A stretch of 21,539 nucleotides of DNA from Jimgerdemannia flammicorona (lineage: Eukaryota > Mucoromycota > Endogonomycetes > Endogonales > Endogonaceae): contig RBNI01001631.1 of assembly GCA_003990745.1 (NCBI GenBank), positions 1-21,539 on the forward strand. Reading direction: 5' to 3'. The notes under the pieces were generated by a model that saw nothing but the letters and a program-made list of their open reading frames with translations, had not been told where the DNA came from and ran no database searches. Made by a program: the position numbers and the translations under genes. The stretch's first letter is position 1. Each line of letters opens with the position of its first letter. Positions 1 to 21,539 of the stretch are shown in pieces.

Positions 1-65
1 TAATAGTCACTTGGACTCTGCCTTTTATTACCTGTCTATTAATAATTTTACAGTTTACCCTCCCA

Positions 66-3000: not shown

Positions 3001-3079
3001 AAGTAAAAATGTTCTTATGCTGCCCAGATCCCCATAACCCATTCACATTCAGAGAGAAAATGTTAGGTGTACTGTTCAT
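66..3079 (-). pseudogene. LINE copy A ORF2: APE endonuclease + reverse transcriptase (core deleted) + C-terminal zinc-binding region
   Basis: ORF2 of a LINE normally nicks target DNA with an APE-type endonuclease and primes reverse transcription there. The ATG at 3079 opens with NIFSLNVNGLW, the usual endonuclease N-terminus. Further on are the SNFN block (usually GDFN) and the terminal SDH near 2400. The RT fingers are seen around 1690-1620 (GENGLPWDFW) and 1420-1350 (QQGFVGGRLIRDGTAW). The next residues should lead into the palm, but about 641 bp present in copy C are missing, so the GDPLSP and FADD motifs are absent. The tail is intact: CEEC, then HWLGEC near 490-560, a zf-RVT-like pattern. 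The frame changes several times (around 2440, 1870 and 1210), and in-frame stops occur, one at 405. The probable original stop is near 66. This is a pseudogene. Confidence 0.85.
1311..1331 (-). other. Deletion junction in LINE copy A RT domain
   Basis: The flanking sequence CTGCCAGAGA (1301 here, 19539 in copy C) and GCAGTTCCAT (1331 here, 20210 in copy C) are 30 bp apart in copy A but 671 bp apart in copy C. The missing 641 bp encode the RT palm, including the catalytic FADD. A C-rich run (CCCCCCCC) sits at the junction. It must be a loss in A, because copy C carries the canonical RT order. Confidence 0.85.
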
Positions 3080-3110
3080 AAGAAATAATGTTATTCATCA
3101 ATCTCATCCT

Positions 3111-5074
3111 CTACAAATCTGCATTCAACTCCTCCTGTGCTAAGTCCAAGTCATATTCTGCAGCTAGTCCCTTCTCTTCAGCTTCCTGTGCTGCCAACCC
3201 TCTCAGAAGTTCAGCCATCTTCCTATCCTCTTTCTCCTCAAAGTCCTCATGATACTCCAGACAGGCCTTCTGCAAGAGCTGCAAGACATGATGCTCTGCC
3301 CAGCAATAGGCAGCCCACTCACCAGCAACAACTGCCAGATCCACCTCTCTCACCTTATCAACCTCATACCCCTCCTCCTCTATGAAAATTGCAAGAATTT
3401 CTACCTTCAGTGCCTCCACCACTCCATCACCATGCAGAATCCTTGCTCAATGCTCCTCAGGCATCACATACAGGTCCACTTCTCCCAACTCCTCAGCTGC
3501 GAGGTTATCCATCACCCTGCTCATCCACAGCAGATTCCCCACCTCCTTCCCTCCAGGAGTCCCTGGCCACCCTGCATCCAGTATTGTGGTATCTGCTCCT
3601 ACACTGGCAGCCTCATCCCACTCCTCCTCAGGGACATCCACCAGCTCGTCCTCACCAACTGCCACCACCTGACCCCCTTTTGCCACATTGGGCACCCCAA
3701 AGTATACTCTCTAGGCCCCCTGCATCAGCACATCCTCTGCTGCCCCTCTCTTCCCTACTGGGCCCCTCCTGATAAGAGGTGGGGGGGTACCATCCAACTC
3801 CTGCTCCCAGATTTCAAATGTACCATCTATATAGAGGTCCTTGCTTGGCACCTTCCTAGCCCCTTCCTTGTTTGCCTCCACCTCCCCTCCTCCTTTACTA
3901 GCCCAGATGCTGGCTTCGACTCCTCCAGCCTTCTCAGCCCCATCCACCTTCTTTGTTGCCCCTTCTTTCATACTTGCCAAGAGCTCCCTCTTCCTCTTAC
4001 ATCCCTGGGCCCACTCCCACTACCTCTTACATCCCCGGACCCACTCCCACTGCCTCTTGTCAGTGTGGATACACTTTCCCTCCACAATCTCCAAGTGTGT
4101 CGACTCTTCATATTTCTTCCAGACCTTTGCCCTCTGCTCAACTGCTCCACCCATCTCTTCCAGCACCTCAAGTAGATCCTCCTCCTCCTTCTCACTCCCT
4201 TTTACCCTAAACACTTGACAGCTGAAAGCCCCCCAAAGCATTACTGCCAGGCAGTCACTCATCTTCCCAGTGGCCTTCTTCTCTGCTAGTCAAATCCTTA
4301 TATCAACATCCCCAGTCCTGATGGTGGTCCCCTCACAAATCTGAAAACCAATATCAACCACATTGCCATACTCAGCCATCACCTCCTCAACCTTCCTCCT
4401 CATCTCAACCACCATCACTATAGGTAATCCCTTTACCAGCAGCTGTACCACCCTGGGGTCCCACCTCAGGCAATGCACCATAGGGACCACTACCTCTCCA
4501 ACTACAACTCCAGCCTTCAGAGCCTCATCCAGTATGCCCACCTCCTCAAAACCCACTTCTACCCCCTTCAGCCCCTTCAGAAACTTCACTGAGGTAGCTC
4601 CAGCCACCTGCTTCAAGATAAGCCCCAGGACCATCCTTGCTGTCACTGCCAAGCCCTGGAAGTACAGGGTCACTGCATACTCTGAAATCGACTTCTTGAG
4701 TAACAGTGCCACCACCAGCCCTGTCACACCATTGGCCAGGTCCTCCTTCTGTATTGGGAACCCCTGCCCCACTCCACCATCAGCTGTCACATCTCTTTTT
4801 TTTTCCTGATTTCCCATCACACTTCTATCAGCAGTCCCACCCCCAGCCACAGCACCTCCAGCAACTATGCTCACATCCCCCACCTGAGTACCTCCCCCCC
4901 TCCCAAGGCTTGCCTTGCCCTTCCCCTCAGTAGCACCAGTCCTAGAACCCACCAGCCACCCACTCCCCTTCACCTTATCTGCGCAACTTAAGGGGCCAGG
5001 CCTTCCCTCATTGCCACCAGCCACTGGACACCTCTGGAGCCCTCACCACTCTTCAACCCTCCAAAGGCCCCCAT
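3111..5074 (-). pseudogene. LINE copy A ORF1 (RNA-binding gag-like protein), interrupted by stops
   Basis: One minus-strand frame stays readable from about 5050 to the stop at 3111. It is broken only by single stops near 4290, 4020, 3711 and 3447, so this was one protein of roughly 640 residues. The segment near 4420-4290 (VKGLP, then an amphipathic helix, then YGNVVDIGF) looks like the RRM-like fold found in many LINE ORF1 proteins. That is inference from pattern. Upstream is a Gly-rich low-complexity N-terminus; downstream is an acidic, helix-rich C-terminus (residues EEKEDRKMAELLRGL near 3200). At 4290 copy B has Trp where A has TGA, which shows the stop arose by transition. The probable start is the ATG at 5074, aligned with the ATG at 6359 in copy B. 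A one-base frame slip near 5050 separates it from the main frame. ORF1 binds the LINE transcript in related elements. Confidence 0.75.
3993..4052 (-). repeat. Two tandem 30-bp units within LINE ORF1
   Basis: Two 30-bp copies (3993-4022, 4023-4052) begin CCTCTTACATCCC on the plus strand, followed by the start of a third (CCTCTTG). On the minus strand each encodes ten residues of the form xWEWxxGCKR. In one copy the first codon has become TAG, where the other has Gln. Copy B appears to carry a single unit near 5300-5330, so the duplication arose within the family. Confidence 0.75.
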
Positions 5075-5261
5075 CTCCAGGCTATAACCCCTTCCCACAT
5101 TCTGCCAGCCAAAAGCCCCAGGTCCACCTGACCCAGCACACCCATCAGAACTCTTGCCCAATGATATTTTTATAATACCTCTACTCTGAGTTGTATTGAA
5201 AAACTATTGCTTGAAGTTGGTGTAATGTGAATTGTACAGAAGAAAGGTGGATACCCTGTTG

Positions 5262-6359
5262 ATGACTTATTTTTCTCCTTCAAACTATCCAGCAACTCTC
5301 TCTGCCAATTATTTCTCTGAGCCCTCTTCCACTAATTCTTATCTATCTAAATATGCTTTCAATCCACTATCTCTAAGTATGTTGAGTCTACATAAGCCTG
5401 CTATGTCTTAGCCTACCACTCCACTGCCCCACGAAGTCCCTCCAGTCCTCCACCAGATCCTCCTCCTTCTCTATACTCCTCTTCACTCTCATCACCTTAC
5501 AGATAAATACCTCTAACATCAATACTGAGGGCCAGTTTCTCAGCTTCTCTGTAGCCTCCTTCTCAGCCAGCCAGAGCCTGATATCTACATCTCTTGTCCT
5601 GAAATAATTCCCCTCTCAGATGTTGAAACCAATATCAACCACCTTGCAATACCCTATCATAACCTCCTCTATACTCCTTTTTGTCTTAATAATTGTCACT
5701 ATGGACACTCTCTTCACCAGTAGCTGGACCACTCTGGAGTTCTACCTCAGACAGTGTACCATCAGAACCACTATCTTACCTATAGTCAACTCTACTTTCA
5801 ATGCCTCCCCCAAGGGAGCAGTCTCCTCAAAGTCCACCTCTACATTCTGAAGACCCTTCAGAAACTTCACCAAGGCAGCTTCAGCCATCTGCTTTGAGAT
5901 CAGTCCCAGAACCAACTTTGCTGTCATTGCTAAGCCCCAGAAGTACAATATAACTGCAAACTCTGAAATTAACTTCTTGAGTAACAGGATCATGGCTAGG
6001 TCCATCACACAATCAGCCAGATCTCCCTGTCCCTGATTATTTCTCTGTATAGTGTTACCCAGCTGTCATATCTCTTTTTTTTCTAGATTCCCTATCATAC
6101 TACCATCAGCTGTCACACTACTTCTTCCAGTCACAGCTCCTCCTGCCCCTATGCATAATCTCCTATGCAAAGGACCTCCTGTCCTCTCCAGAGTAGCCTT
6201 GTCTTTCCCCTCAGCTATACCAGCCTGAGCACCTGCTGACCATTCTCTCTCCTTCATCTTATCAGCAAAACTAGTGGACCCAGACCTACTCTTATTTTCA
6301 CTAGACACCAGCTCTCCTCCATACTCTTTGCCTCTATTTATATCTCCAAAAGCACTCAT
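5262..6359 (-). pseudogene. LINE copy B ORF1, partial and decayed
   Basis: This is a relic of the same ORF1 as in copy A. The ATG at 6359 starts MSAFGDINRG, followed by the FADKM block (SCADKV in A). The block LLLKKLISEFAVILYF near 5960 matches LLLKKSISEYAVTLYF in A, and the DIRLWLAEKEAT segment lies near 5560-5590. Several frame breaks and stops are present. The C-terminal third is absent because the copy is cut at about 5262. B keeps Trp in DIRLWL where A has a stop, so it is useful as a reference for mutations in A. Confidence 0.72.
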
Positions 6360-6534
6360 CTCCAGGCCATGACTCCTCCACAAATACTATCAACTGAATG
6401 CCCTGGATCTACCTAACCTAGTATGCCTATTGGAACTCTTGCTTGATGATATATTACTAGTAGCTTTTTACTAAGTTGTATTGAAAAGTATTGCCTGAAA
6501 TTTGTGTAATACAAATTATACCAGTAGAAGGTTG
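5262..6534 (-). mobile_element. LINE copy B, 5' fragment (5' UTR + ORF1), older
   Basis: This stretch aligns with about 3945-5249 of copy A in the same orientation. Shared landmarks are the Lys/Leu-rich ORF1 core (5742-6008 against about 4450-4740) and the 5' UTR (6470-6534 against 5185-5249, both with GTTGTATTGAAAA). Its similarity to A begins abruptly at about 5262, just beyond the 5' end of A. It is more diverged and more AT-rich than A. The ORF2 part is not in the window; if A inserted into B, it should resume to the left of base 1. The 5' limit near 6534 is where similarity to A ends, so it could be the true element end. Confidence 0.8.
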
Positions 6535-8342
6535 CTAATAAGAGACTATCAAAATATAGGTAAAGTACTTTAGTACTTGATAAGTCAGAATGCAGTCACA
6601 TAGTACAAAGTATAAACTAATATATCAAGAGATCTATTGACTGATAAGTCAGAACACAGTTATATAATACTAAGCTAATCAAACTATACTAATGACTGCA
6701 GTGCTATATATAGATTTAGACACTATCTGGATAGTTGTTGATGAGATTATCATTGATGATATTATCTCTAATAAAGTAGTTATCTAGAAAGAGTGATTCT
6801 TGGATTATATCTCCATATTTATTTATATAATAGTATATGAAAATGAAATGATTGTCCTATAGGATAGCATCATCTCTCTGATATACTGAGTATAATATTG
6901 ATCAACAGAAAAGGGGTATATCATCTTTACTTTAATCTGATTAGCTATCAGTATAGCTTCAGTATGTTATGATACTGTATGTTATAGAGTTGTAGTATAC
7001 TAGTAGTTATTCTTTATATATATCACTTGTACTCAAGAGATAGAGTTGTTAATGCTATCCCAAGAGTGATCTGGATATATAAGTTGTGTTCTCCTATTTC
7101 TTCATTATAGTTGAAGTAGTCAGATATGAATACAAGTTGATACTTATGCCAGTGGTCATTCTCTTAATAGATCTCATAGATAGTTATAAAATATTATAAG
7201 TATATAAATAAGATTGGTAAAGTAATCAGAGTTGACAGAGATCCTTAGCTAGAGGTTATCTCAGTGTTAGAGTGGTCATTGTCTTCTGCTTTATTATTAT
7301 CAAACTAGATTATATTATAGATATCATTTATAGTATATCTAACTTAGGACATTTGTAGAATATAGTCATCTAGGTGTGAGAAGGGTCTATCTATAATTTG
7401 GACATACTTGATATAATTCTGATTGTGTTCTCAAACTATATTTTCAATTTAGTTATATATCAGAGTAGTAACTATTTTGGTACTAGTAACTCAAAAATAG
7501 AGAATAACGATACTATACTTATAGAAGATTTCTCAGTATATGTATACAATGAGCTTCAGGTATTGAGATCTTTCAGTAATGTCTACATTATAGTAGTAGT
7601 TTACCATATCTTTCAGAAGGTAGCTAATTTGAATATAGCTTGTGATTTGTCTAATTCTGTAAGTACACAACCTCTAAGCTACAGAAATTACACCTCACCC
7701 TCAGAACAAATTTGGAAATTACCTATAAGATCACTAAGCTAAGTTAAACTGAACTCACAAATTATGAAGCTGAGTTAACTCAAAGTTATGAAATATAAGA
7801 TATATGAAAATAGAATATTACTATTCAGGACTGAAAGCATATATACTGAATATATAGAATATCAAAATGAAGATCTACAACAAACTGAAACCATAACTAC
7901 AAACATTCAAATATATACAAGATATAACTGCTGAAATTTATAATTATATTGATACTGATATTTGGAATTTCATTGTAAACTTAGCCACAGTACTCCTACC
8001 TCTCATAAATATTTATAGTCTAGTACTGCCCTATTTTATAATAGTCCAATAGAATGCTTTAAACATATTAAGTAAGGCCCACCAAATCAGATAATTCTCA
8101 AGCTACTATCAGATCAGCTGTCTCCTGAAAGAAATAATTAACCTCTACTATGATAAAATATTACCAAAATATCTCAATACCCGAAACTCATCCTCTGTAA
8201 ATACTAAGAACTCTTTTATAAGTATAGCACCTTTATTCCCCACCTCTAAGTTACTACTGCTAAAATGATTGTAACTTTGACTTGTGGTCAAATTGACAAT
8301 ATGATATGTATAAGAACTCAATCATAAATATATCAAGTATAC
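6535..8342. other. AT-rich intergenic spacer, no recognised gene
   Basis: About 1.8 kb of strongly AT-rich DNA lies between the 5' end of LINE copy B and the 5' LTR. The longest plus-strand frame, 7398-7742 (114 codons), has a biased Ile/Asn/Ser/Val composition and no domain I recognise; I do not call it a gene. On the minus strand, one frame from about 7640 to 6980 has fewer stops than expected for such AT-rich DNA (about 11 in 215 codons), and these are mostly TAA and TGA. This might be a very old coding relic. No tRNA, terminal repeat or element end was recognised. The last five bases, TATAC (8338-8342), would be one half of a target-site duplication for the LTR element. Confidence 0.5.
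6578..6676. repeat. Imperfect direct repeat at the spacer edge
   Basis: TGATAAGTCAGAA occurs at 6578 and again at 6642, each followed by a similar CAGT(C/T)A(C/T)ATA stretch of about 35 bp in all. The period is 64 bp. It lies just outside the 5' end of LINE copy B. No function is evident. Confidence 0.55.
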
Positions 8343-8456
8343 TGTAACAAGCAAATAGTATAATATAACCAGATGATACAAACCCAGCAAAGCATAGTTA
8401 CCCATGCACATCATACTTATAATTAGCTAGAATCCTGAATTAGGGTTGTTTATCTG

Positions 8457-8551
8457 TATCCTGAGAACACACCTGTGTCTGGTGGACACACTTATATCCT
8501 GCAGACATACTTATGTCCTGCAGACACACTCATGTCTTAAGAACACATTCA
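8457..8551 (+). repeat. Five tandem 19-bp units in the LTR (5' copy)
   Basis: Five consecutive 19-bp units occupy this stretch with no gap. The consensus is TRTCCTGCAGACACACTYA, centred on the palindrome CTGCAG. The outer units are the most diverged. They end about 60 bp upstream of the TATA box, the usual place for LTR enhancer elements; enhancer activity is inference. Confidence 0.85.
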
Positions 8552-8612
8552 AACATTACCAGAAATAGTAAATCTATAATTATCCAGATAGCAACCAGAT
8601 TAGCAACCACAA

Positions 8613-8620
8613 TATATAAA
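8613..8620 (+). promoter_or_regulatory. LTR TATA box (5' copy)
   Basis: TATATAAA lies in a stretch conserved between both LTRs (TATAAAA at 17594-17600 in the 3' copy) and downstream of the 19-bp repeats. It is the likely core promoter for the genomic transcript. Confidence 0.6.
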
Positions 8621-8640
8621 ATACCCCAGAGATAAGTGTG

Positions 8641-8646
8641 AATAAA
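8641..8646 (+). promoter_or_regulatory. Possible LTR polyadenylation signal (5' copy)
   Basis: AATAAA follows the TATA box by about 20 nt and is conserved at 17620-17625 in the 3' LTR. If it is used, the R region must be very short or start close by. It could also be chance in AT-rich DNA. Confidence 0.35.
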
Positions 8647-8778
8647 CCTCAGTCTAAATTGATATACAAACTAAAGAAGTCTCTAAAGATTAAGCATTAG
8701 TCCCCTTATTCTCACTCCAGTCCACTTTCTGATACAAAGCTGAAGATTTGCCACCAAGTTCAAGAAAGAACTTTACTG

Positions 8779-8956
8779 CCTTTGAAGAGAAACCTGCTAC
8801 TTAAGGAATAAGCTACACTATTGGTTTGCTTGCTAGATAAGTCTGAAGATTTCTGCCTTTCTCACTACCTTTGAAGAGAAACCTGCCACTTAAGGAATAA
8901 GCTACACTATTGGTTTGTTTGCCAGATAAATCTGAAGATTTCTGTCTTTTCTGCCA
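8779..8956 (+). repeat. Tandem duplication of 89 bp inside the LTR (5' copy)
   Basis: Two 89-bp copies, each starting CCTTTGAAGAGAAACCTG (8779 and 8868), run through AAGGAATAAGCTACACTATT to TCTGAAGATTTCTG. The same duplication is in the 3' LTR (17758 and 17846, period 88), so it predates this insertion. Confidence 0.85.
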
Positions 8957-9723
8957 CCTAAGAGAAAGCCACCTTACTCAAGCCAGTTTCTGATGCAAAT
9001 TCATAGTGAATCTGTTTGTGCAAATGAAGCCAGTCTTTGATGCAACTTTGCCAAGAGACCCTTTCCCAAAGCTGCTAGTAATATTTCCCAGTTGAAGCTG
9101 CTATTTTCAAAATGAAGTCCTCTGATTCAGAAGAATCTGCATCAACTGCCATTTTCAAGTTATTCACCACATTCTCAGAAGAACCTTGCCAATTCAGGAA
9201 GAATGTGCATCATCCGAGTTATCTGAGCTATCTGTACCATCTGAGTTATTAGTTTGTTCTCAGTGAACCTGATTCAGAAGAATCTGCCACCAGCATAATT
9301 CCCAGTGAGCTATTTTAGGAGAACCCACACCTAAGTTGCCTGCCTAACTACATAAGGAATTGCCAAATTACCAGATTGTCATATATAAGAAACCTGCCAT
9401 GCTACACAAGACCATTATCCAGAAATAGCATACTTTTGGAGATCATCACACTATACAGAGATTGCCCATCACTTAAGAAGGAGAACCACTAAATTGCCAG
9501 ACTATTACACATAGAGATTGTTGCACTACAGACGAAATTCTACCAATTCTCAGTTGACTCCAGAAGGGAACCCATTTATAAACCACTGCGATACCAAGAG
9601 AACTGTCCCAATAAGGAAACTTGATGAGATTAACCATTGTATCCAGATTGACTATTATACTACTAAACACTAATAAGGACCTCAGGAATATTAGAACATT
9701 TTGTTGCTTTTTAACAAAGTAAC

Positions 9724-9741
9724 TGGGGGCTCAAGCCAAAC
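9724..9741 (+). promoter_or_regulatory. Candidate tRNA primer-binding site
   Basis: TGGGGGCTCAAGCC begins 7 nt after the inferred LTR end and starts with TGG, the complement of the tRNA CCA end. The priming tRNA is not identified. Decay at C residues may have altered the site. Confidence 0.5.
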
Positions 9742-9832
9742 TACACCAACTCCCAATCTTGTAATTTGCCTCCATTGAGCCAGACATGTTACATTTGGGA
9801 GCTCAACTGGGAAGATTTCAAAATCAACATAA

Positions 9833-11310
9833 CTTTTCAGGTCACAAGATCTCACAGTCAAACTGGATACATTTGATATAACACTAATCTCTGCCACTAA
9901 AGGAGAACTAGTTATCACTAGCATTTGGACAAGAAGAGAAGTAATCAACTCAAGACTTGCCAACTACCCAGCATCAGAAGGTTCCCAACCAGAACCAGAA
10001 GTCAGTACAGCCCGAAATCCCCAACCAGATCAACCAGACAATACAGGTGACCCTGTTGGAGATTTTGAAGACCTTACACTGAAACTAGAAGATCTTATTA
10101 CATAAGCCCAAGATCTTACAGCCAGACACCCCATACTAGTCCCACTAATCTCACCAATAGAACCTTTACCACCAGCTCTTGCAGAATTGGAAGTAGCTTC
10201 TACAAGAATACCTAGGCTCATACCACTTTGTCCAAGGTCCAGAACCCGATCCTCAAGATCCCCAAGTACCACTATCTCCAGTAATAGTTCAGAAAGTGAA
10301 TCTGAATCAGAATCAGAACCAGAACCAGAATGATAAAAAAGTGATGAAAAAATGGCCATCTTACTGCCAATCTGCACAGAATATCAAGAGAAAGACCCCA
10401 GAGAATTCCTTGATGGAATTGAATAAATTGCAGCTCTGAGAAATCTCTCAGATGAAAGAAAAATTGCCATCTACAAGGCCCAACTCAGAGAACCAGCCAG
10501 AGAAATCTTCCACCAAACAGCAAACAACCCACATTCAGAACTGGTGAGACAGATACAAGCAGCAGCATCTTATGAGCTAGAATATATAGCCATAGTCCAC
10601 TGGCTCATTGAAAAGAATGCAGGAAATAAAACCCACCACAAGGCTCAAGAATCTATCATAGAGATGAAGATGAATCTTGGAGAATCACCCAGAGCCTTCT
10701 TCACAAGAATTCAGAAGAGAATACATGCTGCTGGGTTCAATGCCACCAACCAGAACATTATAGTTCCAATGATCTTCATGTTGGGATTCCCCCAAACATT
10801 GCCCAGTATGTCTGCACCTTAGGCATCAGAAGGTCTGAAGAGCAGGTAGATGCAGCCCAAGGATTCTTTATATCAGACAAGAAACTATCTGAAGTAATTA
10901 TGATAAGAAATAAGATAAAGAAGACATCCTGGTCAAAGCCCTGCAAGGACTCCTCCAAGGACAAGAGAGATCTGAAGAAAGAAGGCCAGCCAAAGAAGTA
11001 AAGAAGGACAGGAGTGAAATCCAAGACCTCAGCCCCAATTTGGACCAATTGGTTGGATAGATTGAGAAACTCACTATCTGCAAAAATCAGAGTTACTAAG
11101 ACAACAGAGGATACCCACCACAGAGGAGCCAAGGTTACTCACCTAGAGAAAACAGAAGCTACCAGTAAGAGGAAAGAAGATATCCTGTCAGAGATAGAGC
11201 CCAAGTCTAATACTTCTACTGTGGATAATTTGGATACTATGCTACCAAATATGATAACAAAAGAAGTGACTGAAGGGACTCAGAACCACTAAACTGAAGG
11301 AATGACACTC
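9833..11310 (+). pseudogene. gag pseudogene with decayed CCHC zinc knuckle
   Basis: Gag forms the particle and binds the element RNA. The frame is readable from about 9833; no intact ATG was found, so the start is unknown. An N-terminal acidic/Ser region ends in a SESESESEPEPE run near 10290-10330. It is followed by a TGA-TAA pair and then a capsid-like part: MAILLPICTEYQEKDPREFL from 10352, later LGESPRAFFTRIQKRIHAAG near 10676-10735. TAA codons at 10103 and near 10425 replace probable Gln. The frame slips by one base at the C-run 10789-10793, and again near 10890. The final frame has a zinc-knuckle relic at 11211-11252 with C-X2-C-X4-H-X4-C spacing, in which three of the four ligands are now Tyr. 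Downstream (11310-11500) the same frame encodes a basic stretch (KRKRP...GRPSR, 11436-11470). Confidence 0.75.
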
Positions 11311-11629
11311 AGTACAAGAAGACTGAAGTCCATCCTGTTGAAGATTTCGAGGAAATAAGCAACTTGAAAGAGTACAGTAACCTAGACTTGTACCCTACTA
11401 AGGTTACCACCCAAAAAACAGTCTACCCAGCAGAGAAGAGGAAGAGACCTATAGGAAGGCCATCTAGAAATATCAGCAGAAGAATTATCCAGAAAGCAGA
11501 TAAAGAGTATGAATAGGAGCAAGTAGAAACACCTCTCTGAACTCCTTCACACTTTGCCTCTGAGACAAATGAGCTGCCATCAGAGGATGAAAAAATGAAC
11601 AAGAAGAACAAGAACCTACTGCCACAAAG

Positions 11630-12178
11630 TCCAAGAAGAAGTACACCCTGAAGACCATGCCCAGAGATATCTATAATGAAGCCTGGCAGAAGATTCAAGA
11701 AGCCAAGATAGAAGTCCCTCTCCTGCAGTTCCTACAACTGATACCAGCTAGAGTCTGAAACAAATTACTGAGAACAATTGGTCTAGCTGGCCAGGTTCCA
11801 ATTTCACAGCAAGAGCCCACCCCCACATCTATCCAGGCTGCAGAGAGACATGTCAGCACCTACTTACATGGAGACATTGAAGGACAAAAGGCGAAAATCC
11901 TCATAGACACAGGAGCAGCTGTCTGTATCATTGCTAAACAATTCCTGGATACCCTCTAATGGCCCATTTATGGACCATCCAACCTCAGCATCATAGTAGC
12001 AGATGGAGCCCGAACTCAACCTCTTGGAGAAGTATGAAACATCACCATTTCTCTTGAACACATTCAGTTCTCCATTCCAAAAGCTGTTGTTATCAAAGCT
12101 ATCACCTATGACATAATCCTTGGCACCAACTGGATGAAGGAAATGAATACAGTTGTTGATATTGATCAATAAGTACTC
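11630..12178 (+). pseudogene. Retropepsin-like aspartic protease of pol
   Basis: The protease would cut the Gag-Pol precursor. The active-site block ILIDTGAAVCII lies at about 11897-11935, with the DTGA codons at 11906-11917. Downstream, DIILGTNWM near 12112-12136 matches the second conserved block (hydrophobic-hydrophobic-G with following W) of Ty3/gypsy proteases. The N-terminal extension from about 11630 (KKKYTLKTMPRDIYNEAW) is helical and links to gag. This segment stays in one frame, with in-frame stops near 11757, 11958, 12036 and 12170 that look like altered Gln, Trp or Arg codons. The catalytic Asp itself is retained. Confidence 0.82.
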
Positions 12179-12950
12179 AAGTTTGACTACTGAGGCAAGA
12201 AGTATAGAGTTAAGGTGGCCAGCTATAAGCAATCAAAGAAGAAGAAGAAGGTCACAATTCAGGAAGAATATGCCAGCAGCAAAGATTCTACCACTGAGGA
12301 GGAAGAAGAATCTGAAGATAGAAATGAACCCAGACTTAACCCCCAAATTAACCTGGTAGATGACAGACCATAAGACAATGTATGGACCAAGAACACTGTC
12401 CCTATTACTATTGGAGCCATTGCAGGAGAGATCAAAGGATACCCCACCTGCCTCAAGAGATACAAGTGTCCCGAGCACTCCTCCAAGATCATTGGGACAA
12501 GGAATTCGCCTGGTACAGCTTGCTCAGAGTGCAGAAGGAAGAAGAAGAAATGCAGACATATTCCAGAAACACCTGCAGCCAAAGCTGCAGAAGTACAAGC
12601 AATTTGGGAACAAGAATCATCTGAGGAAGAAGAAGCTCCTAACTAAGAAGTTCTTGAAAATGAAGTACCTGAGGAAGAAGAGGTCCCTGAACTCATTCCC
12701 TGAGATGAACCTTGATGGGCACCACCTGAAGATAATGACCTCTGGAATAGAGAAGAAGGACCCAGCACAATCCCCATCACTCCCAAGAAAGAAACTTAGG
12801 AAGATGTCCACACCAAATGGTCTGCCACTCTTCTCAAGACTACTGCTATCAGTGCCATCTACTAGACCAATAGGAGAGACAAAGACCCCAGAGACCAGAA
12901 CCCTCAAATATAGTTGTACAGTCAACAATCTTCTAAGAAGTTACCACTAA
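12179..12950 (+). pseudogene. Pol spacer I: Lys/Glu-rich linker with Cys/His cluster
   Basis: This continues in the protease frame. A Lys run (near 12235-12250) leads to acidic runs (12290-12320). A Cys/His cluster follows: C-X5-C-X2-H at 12449-12478, then C-X2-C-X6-C at 12521-12553 with the sequence CSECRRKKKKC and a His two codons later. The second part matches the first half of a fungal Zn(II)2Cys6 DNA-binding motif, but the second three Cys are missing, so it is not a complete finger of that class. Acidic, Pro-rich sequence follows, with several in-frame stops. Metal and nucleic-acid binding are plausible but inferred. Ty3/gypsy elements do not usually have such a segment here. Confidence 0.6.
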
Positions 12951-13545
12951 GTTGCAAAGCTGATTTAGAGGACAAGGTCTCTTCACCCAAACAGAAGTTT
13001 ACCCTTTGTCTACTCTTCTCCCAACTTATGATCAAGATGGATACCAATTCCCAAGACAACAAGAAATCAACAACTGAGAATATCATTTCCAAGCAATGGG
13101 ATATTGTAACCATAGAAGTCACCTGGATTACTGAGACTGCAGATATCAGAAGATTCACCTCAGTCATGATGTTGCAATCCACACATTGAAGAGAGGAGAC
13201 AATAGAAGCCAGATCTGAAATAGCCAGACCAAGAAGCCAGGAAGAAGGACTCTTAAGATCTACAATTTAGGAGAAGACATTCTAGCTCTTATCAGACATA
13301 CAACCTGTCAAGAATGGGTAGAAGATGCCACCAACTTCATGGAAGCCCTAGACCCAACAGGATGAGGAGAAATCAACTACCTCCAAGACCCCTTCACTGG
13401 AGCCAGATGGCCACACCTCAACCTCAGAGCTTTGAGGCTCTCTGCTAGTAGGGCCTCAGCCTAAGGACAGCCAGAACTCAGCAAGGATGTTGTCCAGTAT
13501 GCCCTGCTACATCCAAAGGCCAAAACCTCAACCAAAGCTCACCCA
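12951..13545 (+). pseudogene. Pol spacer II: segment of unknown function before the dUTPase-like domain
   Basis: The readable frame shifts by one relative to spacer I and stays the same for about 195 codons. It holds a Cys/His-rich stretch (CNHRSHLDY, then DC and IHLSH; 13105-13167) and a mixed alpha/beta-looking part (KIYNLGEDILALIRHTTCQE from about 13250). This is followed by LQDPFTGARWPHLNLRALRL and a Lys/Pro linker into DD(A/V)G of dUTPase motif 1. Stops within it (near 12966, 13075, 13132, 13222, 13363 and 13462) are TGA or TAA at places that suit Trp, Gln or Arg. I recognise no family. Coding origin is supported by its continuity with dUTPase motif 1 and by few frame breaks. Confidence 0.5.
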
Positions 13546-13895
13546 GATGATGTAGGTATGATCTTCACAGTCTGGAGGATAAATCTATCAAATCTGGAAA
13601 AACATTTATGATCAGAACCAAACTAGCCATGTAGCCACCCCAAGGAGCTTACATGTAATTAACCTCAAGGTCTGGACTTGCCAGACAAGGAATAACTATA
13701 GAAGGAGGAACTATTGTGTCAGGATATACAGGCAAAATCAAGGTCATTCTACACAACAGCAGTACAGAATGGCACTAAATTATTAAAGGCCAGAAGATTG
13801 CTCAAGCAGTCTTCATGATGGTCAAGACCCCACAATTACAAGAAGTACCTGAACTGACTGAAGGAACAAGACAAGTCAAAGGATTTGGAAGTTCA
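13546..13895 (+). pseudogene. dUTPase-like domain (trimeric dUTPase fold) in pol
   Basis: Trimeric dUTPases hydrolyse dUTP to dUMP and limit uracil in newly made DNA. Motifs appear in the right order and spacing over about 117 codons. Motif 1 is DDVG/YDLHS at 13546-13571, split by a one-base loss. Motif 2 is SRSGLA, with RSGLA at 13668-13682. Motif 3 is GGTIVSGYTGKIKV at about 13704-13745. Motif 4 is KGQKIAQ at 13785-13805. Motif 5 is TRQVKGFGSS at 13866-13895. Three in-frame stops (13632 TAG, 13653 TAA, 13776 TAA) fit altered Gln codons. The Asp normally found after GxI in motif 3 is Val (GTG), not explained by one transition, so the parent may already have lacked catalysis. dUTPases are known in several retroviruses. 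This position, between protease and RT in a gypsy element, is unusual to my knowledge. Confidence 0.85.
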
Positions 13896-14343
13896 AACAA
13901 GAAAGAAGTACATCTCCTTCAAGTCAACCAGCTCAAGAGAAATGTACCCCAGCCAACCAGTCAGACTGCACAAGAATCTCATCCTGGAGCCTGGATAACA
14001 AACTACCTTCAAAATCTTTGCACCACCCAACTCCAGAAATCTTTTCTTTGAACCCAATAAAGATATCCCACACCTAGACATAGAAGGACAGACATTTCCT
14101 GACAAGATGAATTTAGTTCACTCTTGAGCAATCAACCAAAGTTAGGAAACCATCATCTTGCCAAAAGGAACTATCATAGGGCATCTGGTGCCTTTTCTCA
14201 ACCGAACTCATAGAGAAGTTGATGAACTAAACTCTTTAGGAAATGGCAAAAGGTTACAGAAGAAAGGAAAGGCCCCTCTGCGACCCAGGAGACAGTGAAG
14301 CCTTCCACCAAAATGGAGAAAAATTGACACCCCAGCAATGATA
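13896..14343 (+). pseudogene. Pol segment between dUTPase-like domain and RT
   Basis: The frame changes near 13960-14000. It then encodes a beta-rich stretch (RNLFFEPNKDIPHLDIEG near 14030-14085, then ILPKGTIIGHLVPF near 14155-14200). This resembles the all-beta region often found just upstream of RT in Ty3/gypsy pol. A basic, Pro-rich linker follows (GKAPLRPRRQ near 14270-14300). Stops near 14127, 14142 and 14298 interrupt it. Confidence 0.5.
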
Positions 14344-15252
14344 ACAACTAGTAGAACTTCTTAACAAATATCAATATATCTTCACCACTGATTATGGTAA
14401 CCTACCATACAATCCATCATATCACTACAGTATTAATACTGGAAATGCAACACTCATATGGCAGAAACCCTATAGAATATCTAACCACTTAATAATATTT
14501 GAAAAGGAGCACATTTAAGAACTCTTAGACAATGTAGTCATCTGATCCTCTACCAGCCCCTGGGTCAGCTCTATACTTATTGTGCCAAAGAAAGGAGGAT
14601 GGAGACTTTGTGTAGATTATAGAAAACTCAATTCAGTTACTAAAAAGGATGCCTATCCTTTGCACAGAATTGATGACTTTTTGGACCAGTTACAGGATAC
14701 CAGATGCTTCAGCAGTATTGACCTTTTTGCAGAATTCTATTAGATCCCCATAAACCCCAAAGACATTCAAAAGACAGTCTTTCTTGCTCTAGAAAAACTG
14801 TTTGACTACCTCCAAATGCCTTTTGGACTTTGCAATACACCCCCCACCTTTTAGAGAATGATGAATTCAGTCTACACCCCTTTGATCCACCACTGCCTGA
14901 TCATATATATATGGATGATTTCAATATCTATTCAGCAAATTTCAAAGAACACCTGCACCACCTAGAGGAATTCTTCAAGCTCACCCATAAGAACCACCTG
15001 AGACTCAATGCAAAGAAATGTAACTTCAGGAAACAGAAACTTAAATTTCTTAGATTCATAGTTTTGAAAGAAAGAATCAATACAGACTCAAAGAAAACTG
15101 AGAAGATCAACAACTGGTCAGTATCCAAGACCCTGAAAGAAACAATATCATTCCTGATACTAGTATCCTACTACAGAAGATTTATCAAGGATTTTGCCCA
15201 AATCACCACCCCAATCCAGATCCTTCTCAAGAAAGGAGTACCATTCAAATAG
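14344..15252 (+). pseudogene. Reverse transcriptase of the gypsy element
   Basis: RT copies the element RNA into DNA. Conserved blocks are in order: ELLDNVVI (about 14520), SSTSPWVSSILIVPKK, WRLCVDYRKLN (about 14599-14632), FSSIDL with the first catalytic Asp at 14720-14722, LQMPFGLCNTPPTF (about 14811-14852), and YMDDFNIYS with the YMDD codons at 14908-14919. The YMDD is in a different frame from the blocks before it. The shift coincides with an (AT)5 run at 14903-14912, where one fewer AT unit would restore continuity. The thumb region follows in the new frame (LRLNAKKCNF, FLILVSYYRRFIKDFA) up to a TAG at 15250 that suits Trp. Other stops near 14515, 14551, 14741 and 14852 suit Gln, Arg or Trp. 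Confidence 0.9.
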
Positions 15253-15705
15253 ACTGAATCACAAGAAAGAGCCTTCAAAGAACTCAAGAACTACATAACT
15301 ACAGAATCAATCCTTGTGCACTCTAATCTACAAAAGCCATTCATCTTATATATAGATGCTTCCAAAGATGGCCTAGGAGCAGTTTTAGTTCAGGAAGGAT
15401 CTGACTAACAACACTATGTAATAGCTTGTACAAGCTGAGCTACTAATTGACAGCAGATGAACTATGGCAGCACTAAATTGGAATGTCTTGCAGTCATATG
15501 GACAGTCACTCTGTTCAAGCATTATCTCATTAGAAAAAGGTTCACTCTTATTACAGATCATGCAGCCCTCAAATGGCTATTCAACTATAAGAAACCTACT
15601 GGAATCCTGGTCTGCTGGATCCTTATCCTTCAGGATTACAAAATCACCATCATCCTCAAAGCAGAGAAAGCTTACAACAATGTTGACATACTTTCCCTCT
15701 AGCCC
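15253..15705 (+). pseudogene. RNase H of the gypsy element
   Basis: RNase H removes the RNA strand during cDNA synthesis. It stays in the frame of the RT thumb. All four acidic active-site positions expected for Ty3-type RNase H are seen: Asp in YIDASKDGLGAVL (15355-15357), Glu in KLECLAV (15481-15483), Asp in LITDHAAL (15556-15558) and Asp in NNVDILS (15685-15687). In-frame stops near 15406, 15436 and 15448 replace residues before MNYGSTKLEC. The next frame slip is near 15705, at the boundary with integrase. Confidence 0.85.
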
Positions 15706-16770
15706 TAATGAACCAGAAGAAGGGTATTACAAGGCACTATACCCAAAGGAAGCTCCTCAGACCATCAAGGCACAAGAAGATTTCATCTGAAAAGAATACC
15801 AGAAAGCCCACCAAGGACAAGTAAACATAGAAGAAAAGTTGTGAACAACATACAAACATTGGCCCAATCTCAGAATGTAAGTCTGGGACATACTCAAGAA
15901 ATGTGATACTTGCCAGAAGTACTAAGGAAGAATGAACTACCAAGTACTACTGCAATCAATATACCACCAGACAACATCTTTCAGAGATAGGAAGTAGATG
16001 TAATTGGACCTCTACCAGTTATACTAAGAAGAAATAAGTACATTCTTGTATTTGTGGAACATCTGACTAAGTGGCCTGAGGTTTTCCCAATGGAAATTGC
16101 AGATGCCATAACTATTGTAGAACTCCTCCATGAACTCATACTCAGATATGGACCCCCAGAAGAACTCATCTCTAACAGTGGCACAGAATTTATCAATAAT
16201 ATAATCACAAGTTATGCCTGAATTCGCAATATCCACCTCAAATGGATAACATCATACTATCCCCAGACCAATGGCATAACAGAAAGAATGAACCAGACCA
16301 TCAAGAGAGGACTTGCCCGAGTCAATCCAACCAATTAGGATCTTTGCTTACCTGAGATCCTATAGGAAATCTGAAATACCCCTGCTACCTTTACCAAACA
16401 AAAGCTGTTTGAAATGATGTTTGCCAAGAGGACCAGAAATACTGACCATGAAAACCTAGGAGATCTCCTCAAGAAGGCAGTACAGTTATATAATCAGACC
16501 CAAGTTCATATTTCCAAAGCCCAGGAAAGACAAATGAAGTACTATGACCAGAAATAGAAGGACCAGAAGTTCAAGATTGGAGATCAAGTACTAGTTTGGA
16601 GAAGTATAATAGAAACAAACTTTGTACCAAATTGGAGCCCAAATGAGAAGGACCATATCTTATATTCAACATCAGAGGAATCAGTATCTATTTAAGAAGC
16701 ACGGATGGATGAACCCTGAGGACACCAGTATACATCAATCACCTCAAGATATACCTTTCCCTATATCTTG
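15706..16770 (+). pseudogene. Integrase (zinc-binding, catalytic core, GPY/F)
   Basis: Integrase joins the cDNA to the genome. The N-terminal zinc-binding part is in one frame (His in KAHQGQVN, later CDTCQKY near 15903-15925). The frame then shifts by one at about 15925 into the core: EVDVIGPLP with the first Asp at 15997-15999, ISNSGTEF with Asn at 16174-16176 where the second catalytic Asp belongs, and NGITERMNQ with Glu at 16282-16284. The second and third positions are 35 residues apart, exactly the DD35E spacing. Asp to Asn needs one G-to-A transition. A further shift near 16600 puts the GPY/F module in another frame (EGPYLIF at 16647-16667, ending VYINHLKIYL). Stops occur near 15988, 16219, 16336 and 16363. 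Confidence 0.88.
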
Positions 16771-17283
16771 AACCAGAGATTTGACAACTACCTCCAGACC
16801 CTTATTCTTAGTTCCCTTCAAGTCCTATCAGTTCCCTTGCCACAGTTCCAAGAATACAATGGACCATACCTTCAGAGAATCTGAGTTCATCAAGCAAACC
16901 TCACTCTGGCTGAGAGATTACTCCAGATCCACCAGCTACAGACATACTATACAATTGGAGAACAATTGCAGAATCTCCCCCTCCCAGACCTGGCTTATGT
17001 CTGCAACACTACTGGCCTGAGCAGAAGAAATACCACTGCTGCAGAAAGATTATACACAATCTACAAATGAAACTCTTCAGCTTTAATACAGGCCCAGTTC
17101 TCTCTGAATAACCTCCAAAGGATAACTCTGCCCACCTATCTCAATATCATCCACCAAGTTGAGATCCTATTTTCCAAGAAAGAAGAGGAGCCTTTAGAAT
17201 GGAGTGACCCTAGCCTAGATAATGAAGATAATAGAACAGGTATAGATGTAGAAGCTGCTTATGCTTATTGGGATGATAACTAA
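16771..17283 (+). pseudogene. Pol C-terminal extension after integrase
   Basis: About 170 codons follow the GPY/F module in the integrase-core frame and end at TAA 17281-17283, about 28 nt before the polypurine tract. The sequence is Leu/Gln-rich and looks helical (ANLTLAERLLQIHQLQTYYT near 16888-16945; NTTAAERLYTIY near 17029-17065), with an acidic end (EEEPLEWSDPSLDNED...AYAYWDDN). Only two in-frame stops occur (16882, 17068), both TGA, so it was surely coding. It has no chromodomain signature that I can see. Its role is unknown; in other families such tails guide integration or bind host proteins, but that is inference here. Confidence 0.65.
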
Positions 17284-17310
17284 AGAACAGTCTAGGACAG
17301 ACTATCCTTC

Positions 17311-17322
17311 AGTGGGGGCTAA
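17311..17322 (+). promoter_or_regulatory. Polypurine tract
   Basis: AGTGGGGGCTAA immediately precedes the 3' LTR start TGTGATGAG. A G-run here is the usual plus-strand primer site. Confidence 0.6.
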
Positions 17323-17436
17323 TGTGATGAGCAAATAGTATAACATAGCCAGATGACATGAACTGAGTATAGCATAGTTACCCATACATATCATACTTAT
17401 AATTAGCTAGGATACTGAATCAGGGTTGTTTATCTG

Positions 17437-17531
17437 TATCCTGAGGACACACCTGTATCCAGCAGACACACTTATGTCCTACAGACACACTCATATCCTG
17501 CAGACACACTCATATCTTAAGATCACACACA
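17437..17531 (+). repeat. Five tandem 19-bp units in the LTR (3' copy)
   Basis: The units are the same size, number and phase as at 8457-8551. Unit 4, TATCCTGCAGACACACTCA, is closest to the consensus. Unit number is identical in both LTRs. Confidence 0.85.
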
Positions 17532-17593
17532 AATATTACTAGAAATGATAAATCTATAATTTTCCAGATAGCAATCAGATAGCAACCACAATG

Positions 17594-17600
17594 TATAAAA
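17594..17600 (+). promoter_or_regulatory. LTR TATA box (3' copy)
   Basis: TATAAAA is at the same place as in the 5' LTR, with AATAAA at 17620-17625 downstream. Confidence 0.5.
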
Positions 17601-17757
17601 TACCCCAGAGATAAGAGTGAATAAACCTCAGTCTGAATTGAAGTGCAAACCAAAGAAGTCTCTAATGATTGAGCATTGGTCCCCTTATTCCCACTCTGGT
17701 CTACTTTCCAATACAAAGCTGAAGATTTGTCACCAAGTTCAAAGAAGAACTTCACTG

Positions 17758-17934
17758 CCTTTGAAGAGAACTTGCCACTTAATAAATAAGCCATGCTATT
17801 GGTTCACTTGCTAGATAAGCCTGAAGATTTCCACCTTTTTTACCACCTTTGAAGAGAAACCTGCCACTTAAGGAATAAGCTACACTATTGATTTACTTGC
17901 CAGATAAGCCTGAAGATTTTCACCTTTTCTGCTG
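17758..17934 (+). repeat. Tandem duplication of 88 bp inside the LTR (3' copy)
   Basis: Two units start CCTTTGAAGAGAA at 17758 and 17846. They correspond to 8779 and 8868 in the 5' LTR. Confidence 0.8.
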
Positions 17935-18194
17935 CCTAAGAGAAATTTGCCTTGCTTAAGCCAGTTTCTGACACAACTTTATAGTAAATCCATTCATACA
18001 AATGAAGTCAGTCTTTGATGCAACTTTACCAAGAGACCCTTTCCCAAAGTCATCAGTTATATTTCCCAGTTGAAGTTGCCATTTTCAAGAAGTCTGCCAA
18101 ATCAGGAGAATTCATATCATCTACTATTTTCAAGTTATTCAGCACATTCCCAGAAGAACCTCGCTGATTCAGGAAGAATGTGCATCATCTGAGT

Positions 18195-18196
<2 letters not shown>

Positions 18197-18235
<39 letters not shown>
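18197..18235 (-). repeat. Poly(A) tail of LINE copy C (T-run on the plus strand)
   Basis: Thirty-nine uninterrupted T separate the LTR sequence GAGTTA from the LINE 3' UTR. This marks target-primed insertion and the minus-strand orientation. Length in a homopolymer may be affected by sequencing. Confidence 0.9.
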
Positions 18236-18327: not shown

Positions 18328-21300
18328 TCATCCTACCTCTACCTGATGAAATTCCACTTTGTCCAACACAATCCCCACCCTCCCACCACTTTGCTCACAG
18401 ATTCTAGTTACCATACTATGCCATCTCCCCCCCAGAGGACCCTAACCAACCCACCATCCAGTCAGCAGATCCCCCAACAGCTCCTCCCACCATACCACCT
18501 TCTCCAGCAGTCCCATCTGCTACCCCTCCTTAAATACAAAGAGCCAATGACCTGTCAGTCCTACCCACACTGCCAACATCCAACCTACAGTAAGCCAACT
18601 ATCATCCACCCCCTCCACTAGCCGAGATTTCATGTCATCCCAGCGACCCCCCACACCAACCTGCCTCTGCTCCACACCCAGTCTATTCCCGATTACTACC
18701 CAAAAGTCCCCCAATACCTCACACTCTCCTAGCCAATGTTCTGGCATCTGCACCAGACCCCCAGCCTGCCCTACATTGTAACACTCCTCACACTCAAAGC
18801 AGCCACCATCAACCAGATGCTCAGTATGGAAATTCAACATAACATTCCTCTGCAGTACCCACCACCATACCACCCAGTATTTAGGAGGAAGCCAACATCA
18901 CACCTTGGCACTCCAAGACCAGATACCTGCCCAGTCCCACTCCTCGCCGATCCCTGCTGCCTGCCAGCCACTTGGCCAAAGATCCAGACCAAGACCCCGC
19001 TGACACTCCACTCTATCCCCAATATCAAATGTTTCAAGTGGAGTACCCCCCAGGAGCAGCCTATCCCAACTCCACATACCGGACCCCCACATCACCTCCC
19101 CCTCATTACCCTGCCAACACAGGCCAATTCTGTGCACTCCCTCTACCACTCCCCACCAAAAGCCCTTGAATTGCAGCTGCCGAGTACCATTCAGCCCCAC
19201 CATAGAGAGCAGATCTCCAGAGGACCCTTGAGGGGAGGATCTCATCTCCCACACCTTTTGCAGCAGAGGCACCCAACCCCTGCCCCACAGTTCAGCAGCT
19301 CTCTTCAACCACCAGGCTTGCAAGCAGTGCAACCGCTTGGGAAAATCCACAAGGCCTAGATCCCCCCTGACCACCGGTATCACCAAAGTATCCCAACTGA
19401 CCTGGGCCCTCCTCCCTGCCCAAATCCAATCTCTAGCCACTTTCGTCAGCCTCTTCACCACCTACACTAGGAAGTCCAGGTGATAGGCCACATACCACAG
19501 CTTGGGGAACCAATATACATTCAGTATTGTCACCCGTTCTGCCAGAGAGATATGGCGGCCTCCCCAACCTCGAAGGGCCTCCCCCCACATGGTCACTCTG
19601 CTCTCCCACCACACCTATGGCAGGACTGAGCCATACACAGAGAGGAAGATGTCCAGATACTGCACCACCTCCCCAGTAGGGACAATTGTTCCAATGACAT
19701 CCCCACCCACTAGTCCATTCCCTAGCACCATTGTCTCACACTTATTCCAGTTGAGCTTCACCCCAGAGTGAGCCTCATACTAATCTACTATCTCCTTAAG
19801 TACCTTGACATCTGCTATAGACTCAAGTCCAACCACCATATCATCAGCAAAGGCCCCCACCTTCCACCCTATATCATATATAGAGAGCCCCACCACCTTT
19901 CAGTGAATCTGATCCATCAATGGCTCCAGCAAAAGGGCATAGAGAATAGGGGACAAAGGATCCCCCTGAGGAACTCCTCTTCCCAAGGAAAATGCCAGAC
20001 CATGGTGTCCATTGCACATCAATACTGCCTGACTACTCCCCAGCAGACTCAACATAGAGGCCCGAAATCTCAGAGGAATACCAATTTGATCTAACACCTT
20101 GCCCAGCCAAACCCACTATACCCGGTCATAAGCCTTCTCCTGGTCCAAGAAAACCAACCTGCCATCGAGTCTACAGGTCCAAGCCCCTTCAATGACACCA
20201 TGAACCCAAGCAGTTCCATCTCTTATAAGCCTGCCCCCAACAAAGCCCTGCTGCTCCTCCCCCAGCACCCCTTGGGCAACTTTCTGCAGCCTAGCAATGA
20301 TCACCTTAGTCACCATTTTCCTGTCCATATCTAGGAGCATAATCAGCCTCCAATTCTTCCAGTCCTCCCTTCTCCCTTTATCTTTGTATAATAAGGCCAC
20401 CAGCCCAAGGTCCTGTTCTCCAACCCACTCACCCCTCTGAATAACATGGTCACAGAGGGCAGTCATCTCACCCAAAACTCCAGAAGTCCCACGGCAATCC
20501 ATCCTCCCCTGGTGATGTTTCAAGTTTAGTCGCTGCAAGGACACTCTGAATCTCCTCTCCTTGTACCAGTAAGATCAAGTCACCCAAATCAGCTACTTGC
20601 AGCAGCCCCCACTCCTCTAGTGTATTGGCAATCGCTTCCTCATCTGCACCCCCTTCTTCCTCACTCCACAAATCCTGCCATTGCTCCTTCAAAACTCCTA
20701 AGATTCGTTGTGTGCCATGTACCATATCCCCATCGGCATCTAAGACCCCATTCCACCAATGCTGCACTCTCCTAGCATTGAGGAGTCTCAATAAGTACCT
20801 AGTAGGCCACTCACCCTCCTCAAGCCCCTGCCACTGTAGCCTGGCAGCCATGCCTCGCATATGAGTCTCCTCCTCATCTTGCAATACCTGTTGTAGTTCC
20901 ACTATCTCCAATTTTGCCCTCTCCATCCTCCAGTCCTCCACTCTATCAGAAGTGAGCAGATCTACCCAATCCAATTGCAGTCTCCACAGCCTATTGGAAG
21001 CACACCTTGTGTGCTCCCTCCTCTGCCTCCCAGCCTCCCTACCGGCTCTTCTCCAAAAGACCCTTGCAGTCTCTTTCAAATGTTTCCAACATATATCTAC
21101 AGACAAACCCTCATGCCGCCACACAGCAACCTTTGCCTGAATGTCCTCCACCCATGAGTCCTACAACCCCATCTCGGCCAGCAGGGAGGAGTTAAGGCAC
21201 TAATATCCGGGTCCATCTCCACTCCCCCCAAACCGCCCCTGCCCCAACAGTCCCCAGTGGTCAGACCATGGGCACCACTCCACCTCTAATGACTTCCAAA

Positions 21301-21539
21301 CATTGGAACCCCAATACTCAGCCATCAGAATCCAGTCAATCCTGGTACCTAAGCCATTCACCCAATGTATATAAACCCTTACATCACCCTACCGTATTCT
21401 GCCCATATCCCCCAATGAGCTCAACCTCTCCACCTCCTCCCATGCCCCCAGCCCTCCACTTCTCCCCCCTGCACTCCTCCCTCCATCAGTCCTGTCTAGA
21501 TGCTGATCCTGAACCATATTAAAGTCCCCCCCCAGAACA
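18328..21539 (-). pseudogene. LINE copy C ORF2: endonuclease C-terminus, reverse transcriptase, zinc-binding tail (partial)
   Basis: From the right edge, the end of the endonuclease domain is seen (DWILMAEYW, then WSDHWGLLGQGRFGG near 21290-21240). A helical linker then leads to RT. RT blocks are GEDGLPWDFW (near 20500), QQGFVGGRLIRDGTAW, LVFLDQEKAYDRV (near 20120-20155), GVPQGDPLSPILYALLLEPL (near 19915-19975) and the catalytic FADD at 19840-19851. From about 20544 to the probable stop at 18328 one frame holds, broken only by stops such as those near 20114, 19903, 19789, 19607, 19466 and 18895. The zinc-binding tail CEEC...HWLGEC (18722-18795) is intact. A 23-nt deletion near 20480, relative to copy A, shifts the frame between the first RT block and the rest. 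The copy is inactive but is the best reference for the family. Confidence 0.88.

What the first reader, a model, noticed from the sequence alone, without database searches (positions are those of the whole stretch)
13546..13895. dUTPase-like domain between protease and RT in a Ty3/gypsy element
Five ordered blocks match the trimeric dUTPase motifs (DxGYDLxS-like, RSGLA, GxI..GYxGxIKV, KGQKIAQ, TRxxxGFGSS) in about 117 codons, in the same orientation as pol and flanked by protease and RT. Retroviral dUTPases are established in nonprimate lentiviruses (between RNase H and integrase) and betaretroviruses (with protease). I cannot name a described gypsy lineage with this order. The element may have gained a host or viral dUTPase to limit uracil in its cDNA.
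Basis: partly seen in the sequence, partly recalled or inferred. Interest (0 to 1): 0.88.

Follow-up and report, generated by a model that had tools for sequence, protein, structure and literature searches.

The report
Fungal jumping gene carrying a dUTPase
A decayed fungal retrotransposon carries a real dUTPase, an enzyme that keeps uracil out of DNA; such elements were already described, but here the enzyme is read together with the structural protein, and a second element family in the same genome has a dUTPase of different descent.

Summary
Window 13500-13931 (+) matches PF00692 at E 1e-23 despite stops, in a Ty3/gypsy-type element with LTRs at about 8343-9222 and 17323-18197. The order is protease, dUTPase, RT. 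This copy is dead: stops, frame shifts, Val at the catalytic Asp. Two family markers occur 731 and 765 times in this fungal genome. Of 20 copies picked by the RT side 20 show the domain, six in pieces; 48 of 50 copies read keep the Asp; shared variants show purifying selection.

The order is not undescribed: PosPlaTy3-5, rotifer and planarian elements have it.

Not found in print by my searches: Gag, protease and dUTPase share one frame ending at a stop in 30 of 30 copies, RT following in the -1 frame; GGGAAAY sits in phase in 14 of 30. No RNA structure supports slippage. A second family has Gag-dUTPase-protease order and a dUTPase of other descent (AU p 0.004). Verdict: new variant of a known kind.

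The parts
8343..9222 (+). 5' LTR (starts TGTAACA; the end given is that of the LTR-LTR alignment, true end uncertain)
10352..10819 (+). Gag, decayed, frame 2; recognised from the copies L061 and L062, in which Gag, CCHC and PR share a frame; 10427-10819 has no Pfam hit
11211..11270 (+). Decayed Gag zinc knuckle (CFHCGQFGHYATEC in L061 and L062)
11897..12148 (+). Aspartic protease by motif (ILIDTGAA ... ILGTNW), frame 2; the window stretch was never scanned successfully (searches failed)
13500..13931 (+). dUTPase domain with five motifs; frame 1 before, frame 3 from YDLHS on; three stops in domain codons; Val at the catalytic Asp place (13716-13718)
13969..14295 (+). Conserved tail after dUTPase up to PLRPRRQ, frame 1 after an 11-base deletion in this copy; no known domain
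14238..14244 (+). Place of the proposed -1 slip heptamer (GGGAAAT or GGGAAAC in 14 of 30 copies; altered in the window copy)
14296..14298 (+). Stop that ends the Gag-PR-dUTPase frame (TGA in 25, TAA in 5 of 30 copies)
14345..15170 (+). Reverse transcriptase, decayed over two frames (PF00078 E 3e-34 in copy L058; end approximate)
15349..15699 (+). RNase H (PF17917 E 8e-18 on 15451-15699)
15899..16692 (+). Integrase (KCDTCQKY; core 15991-16218 with PF00665 E 7e-4, 20.4 bits, below the cut-off of 32.6; GDQVLVW)
17323..18197 (+). 3' LTR, runs into a poly-T run

Best explanation
The window holds a dead copy of an abundant fungal Ty3/gypsy-type LTR retrotransposon that encodes a dUTPase of the homotrimeric kind. 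In the active ancestor one frame coded Gag, zinc knuckle, protease, dUTPase and a conserved tail; RT, RNase H and integrase followed in the -1 frame, probably through ribosomal slippage at GGGAAAY before the stop. The dUTPase was thus made at Gag level, freed by the element's protease and packed in the particle, where it turned dUTP into dUMP and kept uracil out of the cDNA. Shown: domain, order, frames in the copies read, common stop, heptamer in 14 of 30 copies, selection, spread. Inferred: enzyme activity, slippage, packaging, benefit.
For: PF00692 on the window itself 1e-23. The model of relative P0001 has 110 residues with pLDDT of 90 or more, in the dUTPase stretch (lower at its end, motif 5), and matches dUTPase crystal structures (target TM up to 0.94). 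Asp in 29 of 30 copies and, read by eye from the output, 19 of 20 further copies. Non-CpG variants in 3 or more of 30 copies: 43 synonymous to 33 not (5 of these stops); singletons 30 to 64 (3 stops); Fisher p 0.0018; same trend in tail and RT. Gag, PR and dUTPase in one frame in the copy covered by L062 and L044. Stop in 30 of 30, -1 frame overlap of 70 nt in 21 of 30, heptamer in 14 of 30. Metagenome relatives P0001, P0002, P0003 end at the same place.
Against: No structure signal 3' of the heptamer: z between -0.45 and 0.56 in the 10 of 30 copies that I folded; pseudoknots not modelled. 16 of 30 copies lack the exact heptamer; only 9 of the 16 differ by the CpG-type change alone. The 30 copies were picked for likeness to the window. 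Activity and uracil control were not tested; in bovine immunodeficiency virus a dUTPase-related gene matters without activity (PMC4261571, listing only).
Confidence: 0.72

Rival explanations
1. The domain keeps the dUTPase fold but serves another purpose, such as a structural or signalling part of the Gag polyprotein, without hydrolysis.
For: In bovine immunodeficiency virus a dUTPase-related gene is critical without dUTPase activity (PMC4261571, title and abstract start in the listing). The tail after the domain shows the same selection pattern as the domain.
Against: Catalytic Asp in 29 of 30 and 19 of 20 copies; motif 4 Gln, motif 5 Arg and Phe in 30 of 30.
Confidence: 0.13
2. RT is reached by another route than -1 slippage at GGGAAAY, such as bypass, stop-restart or splicing. 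This concerns one step and does not exclude the rest of the main reading.
For: No RNA structure signal in 10 copies; exact heptamer in 14 of 30 copies only.
Against: With the definition (XXX, then AAA or TTT, then not G) no other in-phase heptamer occurs in the 132 nt before the stop in the 30 copies, and it lies in the short overlap; 9 of the 16 copies without it differ there by a CpG-type change alone.
Confidence: 0.25
3. The dUTPase is a host gene or pseudogene next to or inside an unrelated element, not part of it.
For: In the window alone the domain is separated from PR and RT by frame changes.
Against: dUTPase match upstream of the RT side in 20 of 20 copies chosen by the RT side, and in 30 of 30 chosen by the dUTPase side.
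Confidence: 0.01

Closest known systems
PosPlaTy3-5 of Postia placenta (PMC2864245, passages)
   Same: Fungal Gypsy LTR element with dUTPase between PR and RT
   Different: Treated among chromodomain elements, while I saw no chromodomain here (not scanned). Its frames are not in the passages ('frameshift' 0 occurrences; figures not held).
Tmt1 of Tuber melanosporum and the Phanerochaete elements (cited in PMC2864245; originals not held)
   Same: Fungal LTR elements with a dUTPase
   Different: Order and frames could not be read; kinship with family A or B not tested
Rotifer Juno, Vesta, TelKA (PMC5408684, passages)
   Same: dUTPase between PR and RT
   Different: The paper has PR in pol and speaks of a gag-pol frameshift; here PR and dUTPase are in the Gag frame. 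Animal hosts.
Betaretroviruses (PMC4531489, passages)
   Same: dUTPase tied to Gag/pro expression, at a higher level than pol
   Different: There dUTPase precedes PR and is a trans-frame protein; here PR precedes dUTPase and both are in the Gag frame
Alpharetroviral gag-pro fusion (recalled, from no call)
   Same: PR in the Gag frame, -1 shift before RT
   Different: No dUTPase there (PMC4531489 says alpharetroviruses lack it)

Membership tests
Trimeric-type dUTPase (PF00692) | Profile match above cut-off | tested here: met
   84 bits against 22 in the window, 97.2 in L058
Trimeric-type dUTPase (PF00692) | Five motifs with catalytic Asp in motif 3 | tested here: met
   Met by the family (Asp in 29 of 30 and 19 of 20 copies); not by the window copy, which has Val
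Trimeric-type dUTPase (PF00692) | Fold | tested here: met
   Model of relative P0001, not of the window: 110 residues at pLDDT 90 or more, target TM up to 0.94
Trimeric-type dUTPase (PF00692) | Trimer and dUTP hydrolysis | not testable with these tools
   needs protein
Ty3/gypsy LTR retrotransposon | Paired LTRs in direct orientation | tested here: met
   873-base match at 85%
Ty3/gypsy LTR retrotransposon | Order Gag, PR, RT, RNase H, IN | tested here: met
   RT and RNase H by Pfam; integrase below cut-off; PR and Gag by motif and by copies
Ty3/gypsy LTR retrotransposon | RT tree position | not tested
   No RT tree built
Chromovirus | Chromodomain after integrase | tested here: inconclusive
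   None seen by eye after GDQVLVW; 16375-16554 gave no Pfam hit, the stretch after 16554 was not scanned
-1 programmed frameshift | In-phase slippery heptamer in the overlap | tested here: met
   GGGAAAT or GGGAAAC 58 nt before the stop in 14 of 30 copies
-1 programmed frameshift | Downstream stem or pseudoknot | tested here: not met
   No stem beyond chance in 10 copies folded; pseudoknots not modelled

The most novel reading that the evidence does not exclude
A fungal Ty3/gypsy lineage that puts its dUTPase, with its protease, into the Gag frame and has a frameshift at the dUTPase-RT border, so that dUTPase is made at Gag stoichiometry; and, in the same genome, a second lineage captured a dUTPase of other descent at another site, pointing to a shared pressure from dUTP or uracil repair in this fungus.
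Probability: 0.45. Interest if true: 0.55.

Novelty: new variant of a known kind. Interest (0 to 1): 0.4.

Why it matters
dUTPase capture by LTR elements is known but little analysed. One genome with two lineages that carry dUTPases of different descent, at over 700 and 282 marker hits, is a natural test of whether uracil in cDNA limits retrotransposition in fungi. If dUTPase is made at Gag level, it acts in the particle in bulk rather than as a trace pol enzyme, in line with the higher dUTPase expression described for betaretroviruses (PMC4531489, passages).

Tried and rejected
That the conserved tail after dUTPase is a second, worn dUTPase: profile comparison probability 0.2%, E 0.27, model of low confidence there; not supported. 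That a host dUTPase gene is the source: the query with PDB chain 3so2 scored 150 of 4922 candidates, many at the same places; I could not single out a host gene. That families A and B share one capture: rejected, AU p 0.004. Homologous long polyproteins: 83 candidates, none significant. Relatives of the tail: P0001-P0003 only, of 43 candidates. RNA structure 3' of the heptamer: none in 10 copies.

I then copied from the capped exact-match listings the pairs that lie close together: 43 pairs, 470-478 bases apart. They were picked for closeness, so this is no test; C1, C443 and C777 hold both markers not so paired, and exact hits without a listed partner were not judged.

The originals of Riccioni 2008 and of Novikova and Blinov 2008 are not held. 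'Not found in print' rests, in open-licence PMC papers only.

Full report
What is there. The window lies in a 134.8 Mb assembly of 7,754 contigs. It looks fungal: 22 matches to PF04082 Fungal_trans, none in 14 control genomes, which are all prokaryotes. An LTR pair (8343-9222, 17323-18197; 85% over 873 bases) brackets about 9.9 kb. LTR divergence is K2P 0.171, or 0.109 without CpG-type transitions; no rate is known, so I give no age. CpG is almost absent (observed/expected 0.03-0.06 in four segments of 1-18200, 0.16 beyond), as expected of old methylated repeats. Tuber melanosporum is a repeat-rich fungus with methylation at CpG (PMC4165359, listing); that is context, not an identification.

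Check of the observation. The dUTPase is real: PF00692 at E 1e-23 in the window itself and 8e-28 in copy L058. By sequence the best solved relatives of L058 are 2okb and 2okd, E 3.5e-24 and 4e-24; one search names 2okd as vaccinia virus dUTPase. The model of metagenome relative P0001 has mean pLDDT 58, but 110 residues at 90 or more, in the dUTPase stretch, falling at its end, and it matches dUTPase crystal structures. The window copy is dead: three stops in domain codons and one base missing in motif 1, an 11-base deletion after the domain, and Val for the catalytic Asp.

The family. DNA search with 13450-14000 scored 40 of 923 first-look candidates; the 39 others are 85-87% identical. Thirty became loci (L031 is the window itself); 30 of 30 show the domain. 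A 24-base dUTPase marker with up to 3 mismatches occurs 731 times, a marker at the end of the tail 765 times, reversed controls 0. A dUTPase match is present in 20 of 20, in two pieces in six of them; L077 lacks the middle of the domain. Eight of 30 copies have no stop in the aligned dUTPase codons, at least one of these with a frame shift there.

Selection. Among 30 copies, without CpG-type columns and without variants seen exactly twice, variants in 3 or more copies fall on codon positions 1, 2, 3 as 18, 16, 42 (chi-square p 9e-6); singletons as 28, 30, 36 (p 0.36). Shared: 43 synonymous, 33 not; singletons: 30 and 64 (Fisher p 0.0018). The tail (p 0.0002) and RT (p 5e-17) show the same contrast. 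So the domain was kept by selection while the lineage was active, and decayed after insertion.

Frames. In the copy covered by L062 and L044, Gag, CCHC knuckle, protease and dUTPase lie in the same frame, with stops in it; in the copy of L061 and L058 Gag, CCHC and protease do, and L058 has a one-base deletion before dUTPase relative to the other copies. The frame ends after PLRPRRQ or like residues at a stop in 30 of 30 copies (25 TGA, 5 TAA); relatives P0001, P0002 and P0003 end at the same place. RT is in the -1 frame (L058 open frames 1524-2357 and 2306-3391), which overlaps by 70 nt in 21 of 30 copies. The only in-phase heptamer of the usual kind (XXX, AAA or TTT, not G) in the 132 nt before the stop is GGGAAAT or GGGAAAC, 58 nt upstream, in 14 of 30 copies. 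Of the 16 others 9 differ there by a CpG-type change alone, 7 by more or other changes, the window among them. Ten copies folded downstream show no stem beyond chance. I infer -1 slippage; splicing or bypass stays open.

A second family. The best Pfam hits in the genome (150 of 5,391 candidates scored) include L004 and L008, which read CCHC, dUTPase and protease in one frame, and L005, open from dUTPase into RT. A marker of this family occurs 282 times. In a tree of 37 dUTPases it groups with the cellular and poxviral enzymes (97/93), family A elsewhere; joining A and B is rejected, AU p 0.004. Family A stands next to P0017 and P0069, of unknown host, at 94/86. The tree has no retroviral, rotifer or other fungal-element dUTPases and few eukaryotes, so the donors stay unknown. 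PMC2864245 already says that such elements seem to have acquired dUTPase independently and at varying places.

What it does. By the described chemistry (Asp of motif 3 positions the water, PMC4531489, passages) the ancestor's enzyme would lower dUTP at reverse transcription. Made in the Gag frame, it would be abundant. Neither was tested.

Comparison. The order PR-dUTPase-RT is described in PosPlaTy3-5, in Juno/Vesta/TelKA and in planarian giants; PMC2774666 mentions dUTPases of fungal chromoviruses like that of betaretroviruses, and PMC11105155 reports dUTPase domains enriched with retroelement domains in Entomophthora muscae. New here, as far as searches show, is PR and dUTPase in the Gag frame with the shift before RT. 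I therefore file it as a new variant of a known kind.

Noticed in passing
window 12515-12559: Half of a fungal Zn2Cys6-like motif (TACSECRRKKKKCRH) between protease and dUTPase; PF00172 E 0.0056, 17.2 bits, below the cut-off of 21.
   Followed up: partly
window 397-2644 and 18635-21502: Direct repeats about 18.2-18.9 kb apart flank the element, as if it sits nested in another repeat; no Pfam hit in the six flank ORFs scanned.
   Followed up: partly
window 4166-5202 and 5447-6487: Diverged tandem of about 1281-bp period, 70-76% alike.
   Followed up: no
window about 18198-18235: The 3' LTR runs straight into a poly-T run, perhaps another insertion.
   Followed up: no
P0005 (protein): dUTPase in a 306-aa metagenome protein that also carries PF22936 (copia-type, name recalled); hints at dUTPase capture by a copia-like element.
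   Followed up: no
P0010, P0011 (proteins): dUTPase followed by a retropepsin-like stretch (PF13975 in P0010; by eye in P0011), the order of betaretroviruses and of family B.
   Followed up: no
window 13969-14295: Conserved tail after dUTPase with no known domain; same selection pattern as dUTPase, not dUTPase-like by profile.
   Followed up: partly
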